51,885 bases of DNA from a bacterium (GTDB lineage: Bacteria > Patescibacteriota > Saccharimonadia > CAILAD01 > BJGX01): NCBI GenBank assembly GCA_023261595.1, contig JAHFOQ010000003.1, positions 1 to 51,885 of the forward strand, given 5' to 3'. Shown piece after piece: positions 30,968 through 45,873 of this stretch (the stretch's first letter is position 1; each line of letters begins with the position of its first letter). The translations under genes and the position numbers were made by a program. The notes beneath the pieces are model-generated. The model did not search any database, had not been told where the DNA came from, and worked only from the letters and a program-made list of their open reading frames with translations.

Positions 30968-32074
30968 CTATTTTTTTGGAGGTTTTGGTTGTTTCTTATG
31001 AGTAGATTTAGGCTGTGTTTTCTTTACAGGGTGTGGCGCTTGAGCAGATGAACTATGAGTCTGTGTTGAATTATCTACAGAATTTTGGTTTGTTTTTTGC
31101 GCGAGTTTAATAATATGTTGGTTGTATCGTCTAATTAACCATCGAATAATGAAGAACAAAATTACAATGATAAGCAGTACAAGTAAGATAAGTTTATATG
31201 GAATTACCCAGAAAGTAGTTACTGTTTCGAGTGGAGTTGAGTTAACACCATACGTCAGTTTCATTTTGGCAGTATAACGCCCAAACATCCACTTAGAATT
31301 AAGTGTTTCTTGGAATCGACGAATACTTTGTGGCAAGATACTGCGCGGAGGATCCTGTGGATTAGCTGGATCACCATTAACTCGTAATGTACCAGCGTTA
31401 CGCCCAAGCATATCAGTTACTTCAATAGTGCCAGTTGGTTTAACATGAATGTTCCCATCGTTTCGAAGACGCTCTACAAAACTAATTGGACCAGTTTCAA
31501 AAAATGATGATTTTGCAAAGCTTGGAGTCGCACTATAATATTCCACTACATTCACTTTTTCTTCAACTGCTCCGCCAATACGCATTAAAACAAGAGAACC
31601 AATACTTGCAGAAATTGCTACACCGGTTTCTTGTATCTCTGGAGCCTGGCCAGTAAATCGAAATACTGCATAGTGTCCACCTGGCTCGGCATCGGCAGGT
31701 ACATTTACTTGGAATTGAACGAGTTTACTTTCTTTACTACCTAATACAAAAGGTGGTGGTGCCACTACCCAACTATGTAATGTGTAGCTCGTTTCTTGGG
31801 TATAATCAAAGATAATGTTTGGTTCACCCGTTTCATTCTTTGAACCAAAGTCATTAATCTGACTTTTAATAAGTAGATCACCGCTAGATATATTCGTAAG
31901 TTTTATAGTTGCTATGGCAGTTTTACCAGGTTCACCTTGAAGCTCCAGGACCGGAGGAGAAATAGAAAGAGCCTGACCATTTTCTGCCTTGGCAGGAACA
32001 GGTACACTTAACTGAGCCAGTAGCACGACTAGCATTCCTAGAGAGAAAATAGTTCTGATAAGTCGTGTTCGCAT
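30968..32074 (-). CDS. Secreted/membrane DUF916 (WxL-interacting protein)-like protein
   Basis: Signal peptide; SISPPVLELQGEPGKTAIATIKLTNISSGDLLIKSQINDFGSKNETGEP...FQVNVPADAEPGGHYAVFRFT; C-terminal TM and basic, proline-rich tail. Confidence 0.75.
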   Translation of the reverse strand: MRTRLIRTIFSLGMLVVLLAQLSVPVPAKAENGQALSISPPVLELQGEPGKTAIATIKLTNISSGDLLIKSQINDFGSKNETGEPNIIFDYTQETSYTLHSWVVAPPPFVLGSKESKLVQFQVNVPADAEPGGHYAVFRFTGQAPEIQETGVAISASIGSLVLMRIGGAVEEKVNVVEYYSATPSFAKSSFFETGPISFVERLRNDGNIHVKPTGTIEVTDMLGRNAGTLRVNGDPANPQDPPRSILPQSIRRFQETLNSKWMFGRYTAKMKLTYGVNSTPLETVTTFWVIPYKLILLVLLIIVILFFIIRWLIRRYNQHIIKLAQKTNQNSVDNSTQTHSSSAQAPHPVKKTQPKSTHKKQPKPPKK

Positions 32075-32124
32075 ATAGGTATTATATCTAACTTATTATA
32101 GTTTGTGAATTATATTACAGAATT

Positions 32125-36279: not shown

Positions 36280-36954
36280 TTGGCAAAGACAATTTCAGCA
36301 TGGCAAAAGCTCGAGCGTGTGTTTATTGAGCATAGCAATATTCAAAGATTTCATAAATCTGAAGTAATCGTAACTCAAGGCGAATCAATGAACAATGTGT
36401 ATATGGTTCGTGAAGGACTTGTTCGTAATTATGATATTAACGATGCTGGTCAAGAGAGTACTATTTCTTTCTTAAACCGGTATAATATATTTCCTCTTTC
36501 ATGGTTACAATCAAGTGAAGACCACAAATCATTATTTTATTATGAATCTTTTAGAGATACTACCTGTTATATAGCCAATCACAGCGAAATACTTAAGTAC
36601 GTTTATAATGATAAAGAAATACTCACTTTTTTAACTCAAACAGTAAACCGAGCATATATGAACCATAGTGGAAGAATACTAAACCTTATGCACTCTCGGT
36701 TACATGAAAAGATAGAATATGCGCTATACTATCTAGCGATACGTCTCGGAGAAAAAGAAAACAGTATCTATACTATTCCCTACTCATTCAGTCATGAAGA
36801 CATTGCGAAACTGGTTGGTGCAAGCCGTGAAGCCGTCTCGCTCGAGATTGCACAATTTAAAAAAAGTGGACTTTACACTAAAGTGGACCATTGTATAAAG
36901 GTGGATATCTCTAAATTTGACTATGAAAACTACGCAAAGCAGTTTGAAGTTTAG
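36280..36954 (+). CDS. Crp/Fnr-family transcriptional regulator
   Basis: cNMP-binding fold (FHKSEVIVTQGESMNNVYMVREGLVRNYDIN) and C-terminal HTH (FSHEDIAKLVGASREAVSLEIAQFKKSGL). TTG start with upstream AGGGG. Confidence 0.88.
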   Translation: MAKTISAWQKLERVFIEHSNIQRFHKSEVIVTQGESMNNVYMVREGLVRNYDINDAGQESTISFLNRYNIFPLSWLQSSEDHKSLFYYESFRDTTCYIANHSEILKYVYNDKEILTFLTQTVNRAYMNHSGRILNLMHSRLHEKIEYALYYLAIRLGEKENSIYTIPYSFSHEDIAKLVGASREAVSLEIAQFKKSGLYTKVDHCIKVDISKFDYENYAKQFEV

Positions 36955-37028
36955 ACCCTAACAGATAAGAATAAATATTTTGCGACATAAGCAAAATTAA
37001 TAATTTTCCATGTTTTTATACGTTGTTT

Positions 37029-37044
37029 TGTAATGGTTATTACA
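37029..37044 (+). promoter_or_regulatory. Perfect 16-bp palindrome TGTAAT-N4-ATTACA, candidate Crp/Fnr-type operator
   Basis: TGTAATGGTTATTACA; centre 37036.5, 33.5 nt upstream of the last base of a TATAAT -10 (37065-37070). Confidence 0.75.
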
Positions 37045-37064
37045 GAATTAAACCTCTTATACTG

Positions 37065-37070
37065 TATAAT
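37065..37070 (+). promoter_or_regulatory. -10 box of the giant surface protein gene
   Basis: TATAAT without a recognisable -35 at the normal spacing. Confidence 0.65.
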
Positions 37071-37107
37071 AATAACCACAAGCTTTAAATATATAAGAGG
37101 GTGATTT

Positions 37108-40100
37108 TTGCAGATAAAGGCCAAAACCTGGATTTCCAGAAATAAGCTGTCATACTTCAGCTCTCATAAAGCCAGTTTTATAATTGGTTTATTTGTCGTA
37201 TTTGCTGTTTTATCAACGCTTATTTATACAAATTATTCCCCTAAGAAAGCACAAGCAGCTGCGGGTATAAACGAACAACTTAACTATCAAGCCCGATTAC
37301 TTGATAGCACCGGTGCAGTTGTAGCTGACGGTACCTACAATATGGAATTCAAAATTTATCAAGATGGTACCGGCTGTGTAAGTGGTGGTTCTCCCCCTTG
37401 TAGCGGTACCCTTAAGTGGACAGAAACTCGCACTAGTACCAATAAAGTTACCGTAAAAAATGGTTATTTCTCGGTTAACTTAGGTTCGGTTACCGCTTTT
37501 AGTACTAGTGTAGACTGGAACCAAGATACACTCTGGTTGAGTATAAACATCGGCGGTACTGGCTCTCCAAGCTGGGATGGTGAAATGACACCTTTCCGTC
37601 GCCTTGCTGCTGTACCGTATGCTATGAATGCCAAACAACTTGGAGGGCTCGATTATTCACGCTTTGTTCAACTCGCTCCTACTGCAGTACAGGTGGATAG
37701 CGGAACACTTAGCTCAATTTTTATAAACAAGACCGGTGCAAGTGGCAATATTTTGCAGCTACAAAAAAATGGTACAAACGTACTTACCCTTGATAATGCT
37801 GGTGTGGTAAATTCAAGCTATACTTCCACTTCTTCCACTGCGGGATTAGAGATTGGTTCAATTTGGACCAACACCGATACAGGAGCTGTTACCACAGGGA
37901 CCGACGATACCAGAGGTATGCTTGTAAGTGTGTCGAGAACAGGAGGTAGCGGATCTGCAGTACTTAATACATATGGTGTTTATGGACTTGCACAAGGTGA
38001 CACTGGTGGGACAAGTACTGTAATAGGGGTGGCTGGAATCGCTGTATCTGGAGATGTAAATTATGGAGTAACAGGACTAACACTTGTTACTGGTAGCGGT
38101 CAAACAGAGGCAGTTGGTGTATTTGGAAGTATTGCATCTTTTGCAGGCTTTACCGGAACACAAACAACCACGAATGCTCTGAAAGCCCTAGTTGATATAA
38201 GTACTGCAGGAACTTATACTACTGCTTCTGGTCTTTCAATTGAAACATCAACACTTAGTGGTGGTGGCACTATTGGTACAAATTATGGTGCATGGATAAA
38301 AACTCAGACAGTAGGTACAACAAATTATGGTCTGCGAGTAGATACTGCTGCAGGTGCAGGCACAAACCAAACTGTCTGGATTGCCGGCAATGATGCAAGC
38401 GCCACAACTGCAGCTAAAGGTATCGCATTTGGCAGTACCAAAGATGTTACTTTGTATCGTGGAGGTGCAACTACACTCCAGACCGATGGTTCATTTTTAA
38501 CGGGTGGACGTGTTGCAGTAAATTCAATCGGTTCACCAGGAACAAATGAAATATTTCGAGTCAATACTCCAAACACGGTAGATAATTCAACCATAGCAAT
38601 TATTACCAATACCGGTACAAATACAAATAAAGTACTTACCTTGCAAGGAGTAGCAGGGCAATTTGCAGCATATCTATCTAACCAAACCAGTGCTGGTACT
38701 ACTTTATCTAGTATTGATCTTCTTGGTAGTTTTCGTGCACCTTCTGGTACCAATACGACTCCTGGGTTAACTTTTCAAGCAGAAAATACTTTAGGCCTGT
38801 ATCGTGTTTCATCTGGTGTACTCGGTATTACTGCCAATGCAGACGTTGCACAATTTAGCTCAACCGGTCAAACACTTACCGGTGATTTTACTTTTACTAC
38901 TGGTGCAACTCGTACAATTAGTCTTGGTACCTCAACTACTGGCACTGGTAATACTCTCACAATTCAGGGAGCGACCGGGCTAGCGGCTGGACCAAATGCC
39001 GGTGGTATTGTTTCTCTAACTGGGGGAACCGGTGGTTCTTCAACCGGGCTTGGGTCTGGTGGTGCCGGTGGTGCAGTTAATATATCTGGTGGTGCAACGT
39101 ATAGTAATAACTGGGTTGGTTCAGTAGGTGGAGCAGTAAATATAAGTGGAGCTACGCCAATTGCATCTGTTGTTGCAACAAGTTCTACGGGCGGTGCACT
39201 AGTGCTTACTGCTGGCACCGGTGGTGCAGCGAGTGGCTTTGCATCATCTGGCGGGGGTGCTGGTGGTGCTGTATCTATCACTTCAGGTAGCGGTGGGGCT
39301 GCAGGTGGTGGCGGAGACAAAACTGGTGGTAATGGCGCCGGAATTACCCTAACTGCTGGAAGTGGCGGTGTAAGTATAGGGACTAACGCAAACTCTAATG
39401 GTGGAAGTATTACCTTCCAAGGCGGTAGTGCTGGTACCGGAGGTGGTGGTGCTGCAGGTACACCCGGGAATATCAATCTTCAGGTAGCAACCAACGGAAA
39501 TATTAATGTTGGCGCGAATGCGGTTGCCCAAACGGTAAATATCGGTAATGGTACTGGGGCTACTGCAGTTTCGGTATTATGCGGAAGTGGTGCCTGTGGG
39601 TTTGGTAATAATGGTGTTGCACACAGCACTATTATTGGTAGCACAACTGGTGGTTCTATTACCTACATTCAAACCGGCACGGCTGGTCTAAATATTGCCA
39701 ATGATGGAGTATCAAACACTGTACAAATTGGTAATGCTAATACTGCTTCTTCTCAAACAATAAATATAGGTAATAATGCAAATGCCAGCGGTATAAGTGT
39801 ATTAAATATAGGTTCAGGCCAAAGCTCGAGTGCAACAACTATTCAAGCAGGTTCTGGCGGTTTATTCTTGGGTACTGCTGGCATCTCTAATACCATTCAA
39901 ATTGGTAATACAACTGGTGCTGTAGCTCAAACTATCAATTTTGGTACCAATAGTACTGGTAGTTCTACAACGAACATCAACATCGGTTCGAGCATTGCAG
40001 GTACCACAGCAATTACAGGACCTACTACCATTACTGGACGTACATCTGGTGCATTAGATACACTAACTGTCAGTAATTCCACAAGTACAGGTTCTATAGC

Positions 40101-43100
40101 AATCTTTAAAGACGGTTCTACAGCTGTTATGACAATCGCAGACGGTGGTGGAATACTTTTGCAAAACCAAACCAACTCAGCGGCTGGCTTACAAGTAAAA
40201 GACAGTAGTACTGAAGTTCTCTTTAGTGTTGATACGACTGCTCGTGGTGCTGGTGGCGGAAACTTAGTAAAAATCGGAAATAGCACCGGTACAGATACAG
40301 CAACTACTATTCTTAAATTAGATGCCGCAACTGCGGTACCAACAACTAATCTTGCTGCATTAAATGGCGGTATGTTCTATAACTCTACAACTAATAAAAT
40401 AAGTGTTATAGAAAATGGTACGGTAAAAGTATTATGTAATACTACCGATGCAGGATGTGGTGCAGGTGGTGCTACTACCCTTCAAAGTGCTTACGATGCA
40501 ACATCCGGAAATACTATTACTACAACAGACGGGCGTAATATCGCCTTTACCTTTGCTGACACAACTACAGATTCTAGTTTTATCGTAAACCTCCAGTGTG
40601 TTACTTCTTGTAGTACAAATGGTGTGTTTGCAGTGCAGTCTGCAGGTACTAATGTATTTACAGTATCTCCTAATGGCGGGCGTGCGACCTTCAGAAACGT
40701 TACTGACTCTACTACCGGGCTTCAAATACTGGATGCCGATGGCGGCACACCGATATTTAATGTAGATACTACAAATGAAAGAGTTGGTATAGGTACTGCA
40801 GCACCAAACGCGATTTTTGAAGTTATTGGAACAGCAACTACTGGACCGGTTGTTAGTACTACTGCAAGCATAGTTGGAACTTCTGGTATTTTTGCTGCGG
40901 GGACAAATATGTCTACTACTGCTTCTCCCTCTGGCCTATCAAGCATTGGTTATTACTTCGGTATCTACAACTCAGTAGATTCTGGATCGAGCAATGTTGA
41001 TTCATCTATTTTAACAAGTATTGCAACACAGGCAATCTACAACGGCGGTGATACACTAGCAGGATTAGAAGGGATTAGGGTATATCTAGAAAATGGCACC
41101 GGTACGATAACTACCTCGACTGGAATATATGTATCGACCGGGAGTAATAGCGGGACAATTACCACACAATACGGCATCCTTGTAGCTTCACAGGGAGGTG
41201 GAAGTAGTAGTTATGGAATAGCTATCGATACAGCAGGTACTCAATCACTATGGCTACAAGGTAATGGAGGAACAGCAGCTACTGGTATTGGATTCGGTAC
41301 ATCGAATGACACAAATCTGTATCGATCTGATGCTAATCTATTAAGGTCTGATGATTCCTTGCATATAGTAAATAGAGTTCAAATAGGTTTAGATGCAAAT
41401 GTAGGTACTATTGCCCAGTGTAATGCACTTATAGGATTTGGTGATTGTAGTAATGGTATAGAAGTAGCAATAGCTAGCACGGAAACTACAAATGTAACAT
41501 ATGGTGCAAGCTTTATCGCTGCTATTTCCCCTTCTGGTGCAACAAATACTGCTGGCAATAAAGGCAGCAATAATGTTTTAGCATTAGTGGGTACACAGTC
41601 ATTTAGTGGTAACAACATTGGTACTGACAGTATTGCAGTTAATGGCACTACAGCAGGTACAGTAACTATGCTGAATGGTGCGAATGGTTTTGCAACTCAA
41701 ACAGGAGCAGGTAGTACCGTAACTACAGCAACAGGTGTCAGAGCGGGTGTTTCTCAAACCGCAGGTACTCTTACGACAGGTATCGCATTAGATGTTCTAG
41801 CAGCAACTGGAACAATATCTGGTAGTAACTACGGAATAATTGTTCGTAATCAAACAGCCGGTGCTACTGACTACGGAATATACATAGAAGATGCTGCCAA
41901 CTATAGCTTAGTACTTGCTTCGAACGATGGTGATGCTGCGAGTGGTATTTCTTTTGGTAGTGTAGCAAGTACACCAGATACTAATTTGTATCGTGGTGCA
42001 GCCAATCAACTTAACACTGATGATGCCTTAAAAATTGGTACTCAAGCAGCAATAGGCTCGGGCGCGAGTATAGCTGCTGGTACTGCACTCTATGTAAACG
42101 AAACCTTCAATAATACATCTGGTGGTGTACAAGGCCAAGAAAATAGAATATTTATTAATGCTGCTTCAGCTTCATCTGCAATTGTTCTCGCAAGCAATTC
42201 TAATTTAACTGTTCAAGGTACCGCGATCAATTATACTGGTACATACCTAGCTGGTAGTGGTGGGACAGTTAATGTTGATACCACTGGTACTGTATCTACA
42301 GCCTTAGGCTCAGCAGGTATTGTAAGTAATCGTCAAGGTGGGACAATTGCAGCTGCGCATGCCCAAAACGGTCTTGTTGTCAACTCTGCCGGTGGTACGA
42401 TTACTGCCGCAACTGCTCTTTGGGGTCAAATACAGAATAACAGTACTGGGACAATTACCGATGGGGCTGGACTCTGGATAGCAGCTTCAACTAATACTAG
42501 CGGCACACTAACAAGAAACTACGGCATATATATAGAAAACCAAACTGCAGGTACTACTGACTATGGGATCGTAATAGAAGATGCCGCAAACTACAGTCTT
42601 TTGCTTGCCTCCAATGACGGTGATGCAGCAAGTGGTATTTCTTTTGGTAGTGTAGCAAGTACTCCAGACACCAATCTGTACCGATCTGCCGCTAATCAAC
42701 TTAAGACCGATGATAACTTCTTAGTACAAACCGCTATCAATTCAACCAATGCTTTTGCAGTAAATAATGCGTCTGGGCTAAATTTGTTAAAAATAGATAA
42801 TAGTAGTAGCAACCCTAGTAATTTGGTGACTAACCCAAGTTTTGAGACCAACACAACTGGTTGGACTGGGCGTACTGGCTGTACACTTACACAAGATACA
42901 TCTAACTTCTATAATGGTGCAGCATCCGGGCTCTGTACAAATACTGCTACTACCAATGCAGGTATGAACTACCCTGTAGCACTTAGTAGTACTACTAGCT
43001 ATAACGTAATTGTGTACGTCAAAACCAATGGCCTACCAATAAGCACCTTAGAAATAGGCCGGGCCGATAATGGTGCCAGTGATACTGCTTGTCTTACTGC

Positions 43101-45873
43101 CCAATCAGTTAATTCAAATGGATGGACAAGATTTAGCTGCTCGTTCACCACCGGTACTACCTCTGGAAGCCCGTATATATATGTAAAACAAACCGATGGC
43201 GTAGCTCGCAACATATACGTAGATGCCGTTGTGTTGCAAACAAGCAGCAATGCCGACTCTATTAATTACCGTGATGGAAAGATTAGCTTTGGTACTAACG
43301 CCATTACTTCTCCACTTGTATTACAAAATGTTCAAAATTCTTCAACTGCTTTTACGGTGAATAACTCAAATGGTGGGCAAGTATTTGGGGTTGATACTAC
43401 CGATCAAAACCAAATTGCCAATCCTAGCTTTGAGGTAAATACTACTGGCTGGGCAGCCAAGGGTGCGGCTACTATTGTTCGTAGCACCTCTCAACAAAAC
43501 TATGGCAATGCCTCACTACTTGTTACTACGACAGCTGCGGCTAATGATGGAGCTCAGTATACATTGCCCAACCCTATACAAGTAGGTCAGCAAGTAACTC
43601 TTTCTGGGTATATTAGACTGAATGCTACTGCCTTTGGCGCTGGTACATTAGTTGGTGGTTATGTAAATGGTAGCGGTGATACTACTTGTGTGCTTGCTCC
43701 AGCAATTTCTGCAACCGTACCGGGTACTACGGGCTGGACGCGCTTTACCTGTACATTTACTGTTGCTACCACCCAAGCTACAGCAGTGTTCTTAAAACAA
43801 ACTGATTCTGTGGCTCGTAGCTTTTACATCGATGCTACTCAACTAGAGAATGGTGCAACTACTACTGCGTATGGTCTTGGACGCATCTCTCTAAGTGGCG
43901 AAGTAATTAACCCTACTACTTTCCGTAATCAAGCTGATACTACCACTGCTTTCCAAGTAGTAAATGCAGCTAATACTACCACGCTCTTTAATATAGATAC
44001 ACTTAATAGTAATGTTGCAATAACTAGTACCGCTACTACCTCTTCGGCTTTAACACTAACAGCAAACAGCTTAACGACCGGTAAGGGTATCGATATTACT
44101 TCTACAAGTGCTACTACTTTAAGTTCAGGAGCACTTATTGGCGTAACAGCTAACTCGGCTACGACTGCAACAGGTGGTTTAGTACAAATAAATGCCAATG
44201 CCCTTACTACGGGCGTAGGGCTTAATCTTACCTCTACTAATACCACCACACTATCAACTGGTGCATTGTTTAGAATTACGGCAAATAGCCTTACAACTGG
44301 TGGTAATGCAGGTGGTGTTGCTCAGATACAGATGAATGCTGCAACAACTGCTAGAGGGCTAAGTATTACATCTACCAGTGCTGGATTAACTTCTGGATCG
44401 CTCTTATATATAAGTACTAGCACTACTGGTGCGGTAGCTACAAATGGCGTTGTGTCGATTAATGCCAGTGGTGCGTATAGCTCAACCTCTAATGCAGGTT
44501 TACTAAATGTTGCTGCTAATGCCACCCTAACAGGTACGCTGGCAAACTTCTCGGCCACCGCACTTACCTCTGGTGTTGCTATTAATGTAGCGGGCCCTAC
44601 TAGCGGATCAACGTTTACTGGGTCATTATTTAACGCATCGACTGCTACTACTGGCGCAGCCAGCAATGGTTTTGTACGCTTCAACTTCTCAGCTGCACAT
44701 ACTGGCAATGGTTTCCAGATAGATGATGCTACAGCTACCGGTACTGGTATGGCAATTAATGCTACTGCTCTTACCTCGGGTACTGGCCTTAATATTGCCG
44801 GCCCTACTAGCGGATCAACATTAACCGGTACACTACTGAATATATCAACAGCCACCACAGGTGCCGCTACCAACGGCTTTGCGCGCTTCAACTTTACTGG
44901 CGCACACACTGGTGTAGGATTCCAGCTCGATGATACGGCTACCACTACCGGTACGGCTATGGCAATAAATGTAACTGGGCTTACTACTGGCACAGGGCTG
45001 AAGATAGCCAATACAACAAGCATATCTAGCGCTGACAACTTAGTGATTCTTACCGGCGGTAATAACGCGGGTGCAGAAACTGGTACACACATTCAGTTCC
45101 AGCGTGCAGACGGTACGGTAATAGGTAGTATTGCCCAAAATGCTGCTACAACTGTTGCCTACAACACCACTTCTGATGCTCGGCTAAAAGAAAATATTAC
45201 TGACACCCACTACGATCTTAATACTGTGTTGGCATTAAAAATTCACGATTACGATTACTTAGCTGACCCTAACCACACACAACTTACTGGTCTTATTGCT
45301 CAAGAATTATATACTCTGTACCCTGGTGCAGTTACCGTTGGCACAGATGCTGTTGACGACCAGGGCAGGCTTACTAATCCATGGTCGATAGATTATGGTA
45401 AACTTACTCCTTTATTAGCCAAAGGTCTACAAGATCTTAATGGCAAGGTAGATGCCTTAGATGCTAAAGTAAATGCTCAACAAGTATCCCAAGGCGTGTT
45501 TAATGGTGGGCTTGTTACTGGCAACATAGAGTTTCAGGCTAACGCAACTTTCGATGCAATTGCTACCTTTAAGGGACAGGCTGTATTTGCTGGTGGTGCT
45601 ACCTTTAATGGCACTGCTACCTTTAACGATAAGATAGTAGTCAGTAGCAATACTGCAGGTACTGTTAAGCTACTAGCTGGGCAAACAAAAGTATCTATTC
45701 AATTTAGCAAACCTTATACTGCTCCACCAATAATCAATGCCACTCCTATAGGTATTATTGCTCCTAAATATGGAGTAACAAATATTACGAAGGACGGATT
45801 TGATATAGACATTGATCCTGCTCAACCAACTGATACACAGTTTAACTGGTTTGCTGTAGAAACGAATCCTTAA
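37108..45873 (+). CDS. Giant (2921 aa) tail-fibre-like surface protein with S74 intramolecular chaperone domain
   Basis: N-terminal TM; tail-fibre-type N-domain (INEQLNYQARLLDSTGAVVADGTYNMEFKIYQDG...VPYAMNAKQLGG); TVNIGN-type repeats; Gly-rich tract; two CBM_4_9-like domains; C-terminal TTSDARLKENITDTHYDLNTVLALKIHDYDYL...LTGLIAQELYTLYPGAV (Peptidase_S74). TTG start with SD AAGAGGGTG. Confidence 0.92.
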   Translation: MQIKAKTWISRNKLSYFSSHKASFIIGLFVVFAVLSTLIYTNYSPKKAQAAAGINEQLNYQARLLDSTGAVVADGTYNMEFKIYQDGTGCVSGGSPPCSGTLKWTETRTSTNKVTVKNGYFSVNLGSVTAFSTSVDWNQDTLWLSINIGGTGSPSWDGEMTPFRRLAAVPYAMNAKQLGGLDYSRFVQLAPTAVQVDSGTLSSIFINKTGASGNILQLQKNGTNVLTLDNAGVVNSSYTSTSSTAGLEIGSIWTNTDTGAVTTGTDDTRGMLVSVSRTGGSGSAVLNTYGVYGLAQGDTGGTSTVIGVAGIAVSGDVNYGVTGLTLVTGSGQTEAVGVFGSIASFAGFTGTQTTTNALKALVDISTAGTYTTASGLSIETSTLSGGGTIGTNYGAWIKTQTVGTTNYGLRVDTAAGAGTNQTVWIAGNDASATTAAKGIAFGSTKDVTLYRGGATTLQTDGSFLTGGRVAVNSIGSPGTNEIFRVNTPNTVDNSTIAIITNTGTNTNKVLTLQGVAGQFAAYLSNQTSAGTTLSSIDLLGSFRAPSGTNTTPGLTFQAENTLGLYRVSSGVLGITANADVAQFSSTGQTLTGDFTFTTGATRTISLGTSTTGTGNTLTIQGATGLAAGPNAGGIVSLTGGTGGSSTGLGSGGAGGAVNISGGATYSNNWVGSVGGAVNISGATPIASVVATSSTGGALVLTAGTGGAASGFASSGGGAGGAVSITSGSGGAAGGGGDKTGGNGAGITLTAGSGGVSIGTNANSNGGSITFQGGSAGTGGGGAAGTPGNINLQVATNGNINVGANAVAQTVNIGNGTGATAVSVLCGSGACGFGNNGVAHSTIIGSTTGGSITYIQTGTAGLNIANDGVSNTVQIGNANTASSQTINIGNNANASGISVLNIGSGQSSSATTIQAGSGGLFLGTAGISNTIQIGNTTGAVAQTINFGTNSTGSSTTNINIGSSIAGTTAITGPTTITGRTSGALDTLTVSNSTSTGSIAIFKDGSTAVMTIADGGGILLQNQTNSAAGLQVKDSSTEVLFSVDTTARGAGGGNLVKIGNSTGTDTATTILKLDAATAVPTTNLAALNGGMFYNSTTNKISVIENGTVKVLCNTTDAGCGAGGATTLQSAYDATSGNTITTTDGRNIAFTFADTTTDSSFIVNLQCVTSCSTNGVFAVQSAGTNVFTVSPNGGRATFRNVTDSTTGLQILDADGGTPIFNVDTTNERVGIGTAAPNAIFEVIGTATTGPVVSTTASIVGTSGIFAAGTNMSTTASPSGLSSIGYYFGIYNSVDSGSSNVDSSILTSIATQAIYNGGDTLAGLEGIRVYLENGTGTITTSTGIYVSTGSNSGTITTQYGILVASQGGGSSSYGIAIDTAGTQSLWLQGNGGTAATGIGFGTSNDTNLYRSDANLLRSDDSLHIVNRVQIGLDANVGTIAQCNALIGFGDCSNGIEVAIASTETTNVTYGASFIAAISPSGATNTAGNKGSNNVLALVGTQSFSGNNIGTDSIAVNGTTAGTVTMLNGANGFATQTGAGSTVTTATGVRAGVSQTAGTLTTGIALDVLAATGTISGSNYGIIVRNQTAGATDYGIYIEDAANYSLVLASNDGDAASGISFGSVASTPDTNLYRGAANQLNTDDALKIGTQAAIGSGASIAAGTALYVNETFNNTSGGVQGQENRIFINAASASSAIVLASNSNLTVQGTAINYTGTYLAGSGGTVNVDTTGTVSTALGSAGIVSNRQGGTIAAAHAQNGLVVNSAGGTITAATALWGQIQNNSTGTITDGAGLWIAASTNTSGTLTRNYGIYIENQTAGTTDYGIVIEDAANYSLLLASNDGDAASGISFGSVASTPDTNLYRSAANQLKTDDNFLVQTAINSTNAFAVNNASGLNLLKIDNSSSNPSNLVTNPSFETNTTGWTGRTGCTLTQDTSNFYNGAASGLCTNTATTNAGMNYPVALSSTTSYNVIVYVKTNGLPISTLEIGRADNGASDTACLTAQSVNSNGWTRFSCSFTTGTTSGSPYIYVKQTDGVARNIYVDAVVLQTSSNADSINYRDGKISFGTNAITSPLVLQNVQNSSTAFTVNNSNGGQVFGVDTTDQNQIANPSFEVNTTGWAAKGAATIVRSTSQQNYGNASLLVTTTAAANDGAQYTLPNPIQVGQQVTLSGYIRLNATAFGAGTLVGGYVNGSGDTTCVLAPAISATVPGTTGWTRFTCTFTVATTQATAVFLKQTDSVARSFYIDATQLENGATTTAYGLGRISLSGEVINPTTFRNQADTTTAFQVVNAANTTTLFNIDTLNSNVAITSTATTSSALTLTANSLTTGKGIDITSTSATTLSSGALIGVTANSATTATGGLVQINANALTTGVGLNLTSTNTTTLSTGALFRITANSLTTGGNAGGVAQIQMNAATTARGLSITSTSAGLTSGSLLYISTSTTGAVATNGVVSINASGAYSSTSNAGLLNVAANATLTGTLANFSATALTSGVAINVAGPTSGSTFTGSLFNASTATTGAASNGFVRFNFSAAHTGNGFQIDDATATGTGMAINATALTSGTGLNIAGPTSGSTLTGTLLNISTATTGAATNGFARFNFTGAHTGVGFQLDDTATTTGTAMAINVTGLTTGTGLKIANTTSISSADNLVILTGGNNAGAETGTHIQFQRADGTVIGSIAQNAATTVAYNTTSDARLKENITDTHYDLNTVLALKIHDYDYLADPNHTQLTGLIAQELYTLYPGAVTVGTDAVDDQGRLTNPWSIDYGKLTPLLAKGLQDLNGKVDALDAKVNAQQVSQGVFNGGLVTGNIEFQANATFDAIATFKGQAVFAGGATFNGTATFNDKIVVSSNTAGTVKLLAGQTKVSIQFSKPYTAPPIINATPIGIIAPKYGVTNITKDGFDIDIDPAQPTDTQFNWFAVETNP
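41827..42024 (+). repeat. Internal coding repeat A copy 1 (198 bp)
   Basis: NYGIIVRNQTAGATDYGIYIEDAANYSLVLASNDGDAASGISFGSVASTPDTNLYRGAANQLNTDD. Confidence 0.9.
42517..42714 (+). repeat. Internal coding repeat A copy 2 (198 bp)
   Basis: NYGIYIENQTAGTTDYGIVIEDAANYSLLLASNDGDAASGISFGSVASTPDTNLYRSAANQLKTDD. Confidence 0.9.
44554..44760 (+). repeat. Internal tandem repeat B copy 1 (207 bp)
   Basis: ATALTSGVAINVAGPTSGSTFTGSLFNASTATTGAASNGFVRFNFSAAHTGNGFQIDDATATGTGMAIN. Confidence 0.88.
44761..44970 (+). repeat. Internal tandem repeat B copy 2 (210 bp)
   Basis: ATALTSGTGLNIAGPTSGSTLTGTLLNISTATTGAATNGFARFNFTGAHTGVGFQLDDTATTTGTAMAIN; directly adjacent to copy 1. Confidence 0.88.

What the first reader, a model, noticed from the sequence alone, without database searches (positions are those of the whole stretch)
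37021..37110. Class II-type Crp/Fnr operator positioned at about -40.5 of the giant surface-protein promoter
The sequence has a perfect palindrome TGTAAT-GGTT-ATTACA (37029-37044). It lies 33.5 nt upstream of the last base of a TATAAT box that lacks a recognisable -35. With a TSS about 7 nt after the -10, the palindrome is centred at about -40.5, close to the -41.5 spacing of class II CRP/FNR activation. The gene immediately upstream (36280-36954) encodes a Crp/Fnr-family regulator. The pattern also satisfies TGTA-N8-TACA, as in NtcA-type sites. Inference: this local regulator directly activates the 2921-aa surface protein, giving a switchable attachment system.
Basis: partly seen in the sequence, partly recalled or inferred. 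Interest (0 to 1): 0.75.

Follow-up and report, generated by a model that had tools for sequence, protein, structure and literature searches.

The report
Conserved Crp/Fnr operator at adhesin promoter
In a small-genome bacterium, a gene switch of the well-known Crp/Fnr type most probably turns on the neighbouring gene for a giant surface fibre through a conserved 16-base DNA site, and matching sites lie at another surface-protein gene and at the type IV pilus operon; the switch type is ordinary, but very little is known about how such organisms control attachment.

Summary
The palindrome TGTAAT-GGTT-ATTACA (37029-37044) and TATAAT (37065-37070) are where stated, spaced as stated, with no -35. 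With a purine +1 at A37078 the site centre is at -41.5. The one related genome that keeps the regulator/giant-gene pair (same genus) keeps the 5+5 arms TGTAA-N6-TTACA, the exact spacing and 47/49 bases downstream. Only 2 of 6 centre bases are kept, and silent third positions in the regulator gene are just 42% identical, so this is a selected operator footprint, not chance. Across the class, 12 of 88 other Crp-type genes carry TGTRA-N6-TYACA within 250 nt upstream (0.16 expected), so this site type belongs to this protein family. Best reading: this Crp/Fnr regulator, lacking the cAMP-binding and Fe-S signatures, activates the giant fibre gene as a class II activator. Binding, sign and signal are untested. 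The "NtcA-type" label is not supported. A new member of a known kind.

The parts
36280..36954 (+). Crp/Fnr-family regulator (TTG start, 224 aa): cNMP_binding beta-roll plus HTH_Crp_2; recognition helix GASREAVSLEIAQF
   Evidence: Pfam above cut-offs; AlphaFold2 model pLDDT 90.3, best PDB matches CRP/GlxR/NtcA, E 1e-15 to 1e-17
36975..36989 (+). ATATTTTGCGACATA, identical in the relative although flanks diverge; role unknown
   Evidence: alignments; no close second copy in the window
37029..37044 (.). predicted regulator operator TGTAA-N6-TTACA (G000 TGTAATGGTTATTACA, G001 TGTAAGAAATATTACA)
37065..37070 (+). -10 TATAAT, no -35; 20 nt after the operator in both genomes
37078..37078 (+). predicted transcription start (purine 8 nt after the -10), placing the operator centre at -41.5
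   Evidence: inference from sequence
37096..37104 (+). Shine-Dalgarno-like AGAGGGTGA, conserved
37108..45873 (+). giant fibre-like surface protein (2921 aa): N-terminal membrane/signal segment, two CBM_4_9 stretches, C-terminal Peptidase_S74 chaperone domain
32104..32119 (-). second operator-like site (TGTAATATAATTCACA on - strand), upstream of 30968-32074; G001 has TGTAATATTATTCACA at the same place
32081..32086 (-). -10 TATAAT 17 nt after the second operator (18 nt in G001); ATG 6 nt further, probably leaderless
30968..32074 (-). secreted, C-terminally membrane-anchored surface protein (ISPPVLELQGEPGK...; homologue next to the giant gene in G041)

Best explanation
37029-37044 is the operator of the Crp/Fnr-fold regulator encoded at 36280-36954. 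A dimer reads TGTAA-N6-TTACA and, sitting at about -41.5 in place of a missing -35, recruits RNA polymerase to the TATAAT at 37065 (class II activation), switching on the 2921-aa fibre gene. The same regulator probably also acts at 32104-32119 (surface protein gene; class II-like) and on the type IV pilus operon (site downstream of the -10; probably repression). Shown: sequence, spacing, fold, conservation, family-wide site type. Inferred: binding by this protein, activation, start site, the signal.
For: Exact site and spacing. G001 keeps regulator, site, order and spacing; TTTTGTAA 8/8, centre 2/6, 37040-37088 47/49, against 42% third-position identity at conserved mostly-fourfold residues in the regulator gene. 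Crp fold and DNA-reading R-E pair, identical in 88 of 90 homologues. 12 of 88 other Crp-type genes of the class have TGTRA-N6-TYACA in the 250 nt upstream; shuffles 0.16, reverse-read control 0. All three intergenic G000 sites are kept in G001; no G001 match corresponds to any of the five intragenic ones. The genome's second Crp paralogue (C23) has no counterpart found in G001, so the shared regulator is the simplest binder.
Against: Only two genomes carry the pair (393 genomes of the class examined), so conservation rests on one comparison. Glu at CRP-181 normally goes with G, not A, at the fourth half-site base; a recognition-code test across homologues was not clear-cut. The pilus-site bases TGTAATTGTGCTTA are largely kept in G010, which lacks a detectable Crp, so conservation there may have another cause. 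The -10 spacing varies (17-20 nt). The family-wide preference for class II spacing is weak (3 of 12, p = 0.04). No expression data.
Confidence: 0.7

Rival explanations
1. The regulator binds the site but represses the giant gene: the dimer lies over the -35 region and blocks RNA polymerase.
For: The pilus-operon site of the same type lies just downstream of a -10, a repressor-like position, so the protein may repress somewhere.
Against: At the giant gene there is no -35 for polymerase to use alone in either genome, and spacing is class II-like at two promoters.
Confidence: 0.15
2. A different transcription factor binds the palindrome; the neighbouring Crp gene is incidental.
For: The half-site A does not follow the textbook CRP code for an R-E helix; other factor families can use similar palindromes (general knowledge). 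G000 has a second Crp paralogue.
Against: The family-wide association of TGTRA-N6-TYACA with Crp genes; adjacency and co-conservation; no counterpart of the paralogue found in G001.
Confidence: 0.12
3. Chance palindrome in AT-rich DNA, or an RNA hairpin ending the regulator transcript.
For: Any 6+6 N4 palindrome appears in 12.9% of shuffles of this region.
Against: Arms kept while the centre changed, at saturated neutral divergence. The RNA stem is AT-rich with no T-run after it, and loses a pair in G001.
Confidence: 0.03

Closest known systems
Class II CRP/FNR-activated promoters of enterobacteria (CRP site at -41.5)
   Same: 16-bp core of two 5-bp half-sites separated by 6 bp, centred at about -41.5, no usable -35, consensus -10
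   Different: Half-site TGTAA instead of TGTGA or TTGAT; the regulator lacks the cAMP-pocket Glu/Arg and the Fe-S cysteines; target is a giant fibre gene in a 0.8-Mb genome
NtcA of cyanobacteria (GTA-N8-TAC sites)
   Same: Crp fold; the site formally matches TGTA-N8-TACA; closest solved structure by sequence
   Different: 37.6 bits against a cut-off of 245; helix has Glu where NtcA has Val
GlxR / M. tuberculosis CRP
   Same: Best structural matches of the model
   Different: cAMP-contacting GE...R motif is replaced by FPLSW...DHKS
Saccharibacteria type IV pili and adhesins (PMC12206443, PMC10633639)
   Same: Type IV pili and adhesins as tools of attachment in small-genome epibionts
   Different: Searches of those two papers for 'regulator' and 'Crp' gave no hits; no regulatory circuit found described

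Membership tests
Crp/Fnr superfamily | cNMP-binding-type beta-roll plus C-terminal Crp-type helix-turn-helix | tested here: met
   PF00027 37.5 bits (cut-off 27.5), PF13545 34.5 bits (27); model matches CRP/GlxR/NtcA, TM about 0.8
Crp/Fnr superfamily | palindromic operator of two 5-bp half-sites with 6-bp spacer | tested here: met
   TGTAA-N6-TTACA in both genomes; TGTRA-N6-TYACA upstream of 12/88 homologues
Crp/Fnr superfamily | the protein binds this operator | not testable with these tools
   needs EMSA, footprinting or DAP-seq
CRP (cAMP receptor protein) | Glu and Arg of the phosphate-binding cassette that hold cAMP | tested here: not met
   alignment to GlxR: GELSIF...PRTSS against FP-LSWL...DHKS
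FNR | four cysteines for the 4Fe-4S cluster | tested here: not met
   only two cysteines, C96 and C205
NtcA | score above the equivalog cut-off TIGR03697 | tested here: not met
   37.6 against 244.95 bits
Class II activated promoter | site centred near -41.5, -10 present, -35 absent | tested here: met
   start site is inferred
Class II activated promoter | transcription depends on the activator | not testable with these tools
   needs a reporter assay or in vitro transcription

The most novel reading that the evidence does not exclude
A genus-specific Crp-type regulator has been captured into a surface-fibre locus and runs a small attachment switch: it activates the giant fibre and a second surface protein while shutting off the type IV pilus operon, exchanging a pilus-bearing searching state for an attached state.
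Probability: 0.28. Interest if true: 0.72.

Novelty: new member of a known kind. Interest (0 to 1): 0.5.

Why it matters
No experimentally or computationally defined regulon was found in the held literature for these small-genome lineages. If right, this gives one concrete, testable circuit linking a transcription factor to giant fibre and type IV pilus genes, the structures thought to mediate attachment, and a class-wide operator type (TGTRA-N6-TYACA) for finding regulons of Crp-type proteins across the class.

Tried and rejected
(1) Recognition code: I expected R/K at the CRP-185 position to go with TGTGA and L/G with TGTAA. Early cases fitted, but over 17 upstream sites G stood at 10 of 16 half-sites for R/K and 6 of 18 for others, with contrary cases such as an L helix with TGTGA...TCACA (L184); not usable. 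(2) The same site upstream of giant genes elsewhere in the class: none convincing (gene starts were found reliably only for plus-strand loci). In G041 a homologous surface cluster has no Crp gene and no site in it. (3) A second giant gene of G001 has TGTAATAAACATTACA at a class I-like position, but G000 has only a degenerate version there, so it is not counted as conserved. (4) RNA structure at the start of the giant gene: shuffle z-scores only -1.6 and -0.9. (5) Rfam: nothing. (6) More orthologous pairs: one in genome contigs (the same G001 record), none in viral contigs, no further one in 393 class genomes.

Full report
What is there. The window is contig C16 of a 798-kb, 42-contig genome. 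I infer, but could not prove with named records, that it belongs to the Patescibacteria, perhaps the Saccharimonadia. The palindrome TGTAATGGTTATTACA at 37029-37044 and TATAAT at 37065-37070 are exactly as described. The regulator 36280-36954 scores above cut-off for cNMP_binding and HTH_Crp_2. Its AlphaFold2 model (pLDDT 90.3) matches M. tuberculosis CRP, GlxR, E. coli CRP and NtcA. The downstream gene 37108-45873 encodes a 2921-residue protein with an N-terminal membrane segment, two CBM_4_9 stretches and a C-terminal Peptidase_S74 chaperone domain, the build of a large fibre-like surface protein.

Is it more than chance? A palindrome as such is not remarkable in this AT-rich stretch: 12.9% of shuffles contain some 6+6 palindrome with a 4-base loop. 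The Crp-type motif TGTRA-N6-TYACA appears in 0.165%. Genome-wide the motif is not more frequent than its reverse-read control (8 against 7), so counts alone do not argue for function. Conservation does. In the only other genome with the pair (G001; JAKOQC010000301.1) the site reads TGTAAGAAATATTACA. The outer arms are untouched, four of six centre bases differ, and 47 of 49 bases from 37040 to 37088 are identical, although silent third positions of the regulator gene have fallen to 42% identity. That is the footprint of a dimer-binding site joined to a promoter with fixed spacing.

Does the site belong to this protein family? Among 88 Crp-type genes from other genomes of the class, 12 have TGTRA-N6-TYACA in the 250 nt upstream, against 0.16 in shuffles and none for the reverse-read motif. 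The base-reading Arg-Glu pair is present in 88 of 90 homologues. So the site type is the operator type of this protein family. The exact base preference of the window's regulator could not be predicted: a test of the variable helix residue gave no clear rule.

Other sites. Of eight motif matches in the genome, three are intergenic, and all three are present at the matching place in G001; no G001 match corresponds to any of the five inside genes. Besides the giant gene these are: (a) window 32104-32119, 17 nt (18 in G001) upstream of a TATAAT and a probably leaderless surface-protein gene 30968-32074; (b) C14:25412-25427, nine bases downstream of a TATAAT and upstream of an operon of a PilB-like ATPase, a PilC-like protein and several prepilin-like proteins. 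Position (a) resembles class II activation; position (b) would block transcription. Caution for (b): a same-family genome without a detectable Crp gene (G010) keeps most of the sequence but not the final arm bases, and G002, with only a distant Crp, has lost both arms. That agrees with the model but may also reflect another constraint.

Mechanism. Most likely the dimer binds at -41.5 and substitutes for the missing -35 (class II). Shown: sequence, spacing, fold, conservation, family-wide motif. Inferred: binding, sign, start site. The signal is unknown. The cAMP-contacting residues are replaced, only two cysteines exist so an FNR-type cluster is excluded, and the NtcA model is far below cut-off. 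The regulator gene has no such site in its own upstream region.

Evolution. Giant fibre genes with the same N-terminal domain are widespread in the class (48 of 147 genomes), and G041 has a homologous surface cluster. A Crp gene directly upstream was found only in this genus. The circuit therefore looks like a recent, genus-level recruitment of a common regulator type.

Verdict. Observation confirmed; interpretation largely right in kind, wrong in the NtcA aside, incomplete about further targets. A known kind of regulation in a poorly studied setting. Interest moderate.

Noticed in passing
37108-37190: The first 20 codons of the giant gene are unusually conserved at silent positions between G000 and G001 (13 of 14 identical, later blocks mostly 30-60%), although amino acids differ there. 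This suggests a nucleotide-level constraint; predicted RNA folds are not significantly stable.
   Followed up: partly
36975-36989: ATATTTTGCGACATA downstream of the regulator gene is identical in the relative while its surroundings are diverged; no match explains it.
   Followed up: partly
L079 / L088 (G001:C618:11482-11497): A second giant fibre gene behind the ATP synthase operon in G001 has a perfect TGTAATAAACATTACA at a class I-like distance (about -63) with its own -35; the G000 copy (C13) has a degenerate site.
   Followed up: partly
L084 (G041:C3), L085 (G077), L086 (G117): Crp-type genes in other genomes sit next to response-regulator genes, with TGTRA-N6-TYACA sites upstream of the Crp gene and near or upstream of the response regulator; looks like a recurring small regulon.
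   Followed up: partly
L205-L211 and other G043 sites: G043 has several near-identical TGTGAT-N4-ATCACA palindromes scattered over its genome, suggesting a larger Crp-type regulon there.
   Followed up: no
G023:C7:18814: A giant homologue lies in an open frame of 25,790 codons in G023.
   Followed up: no
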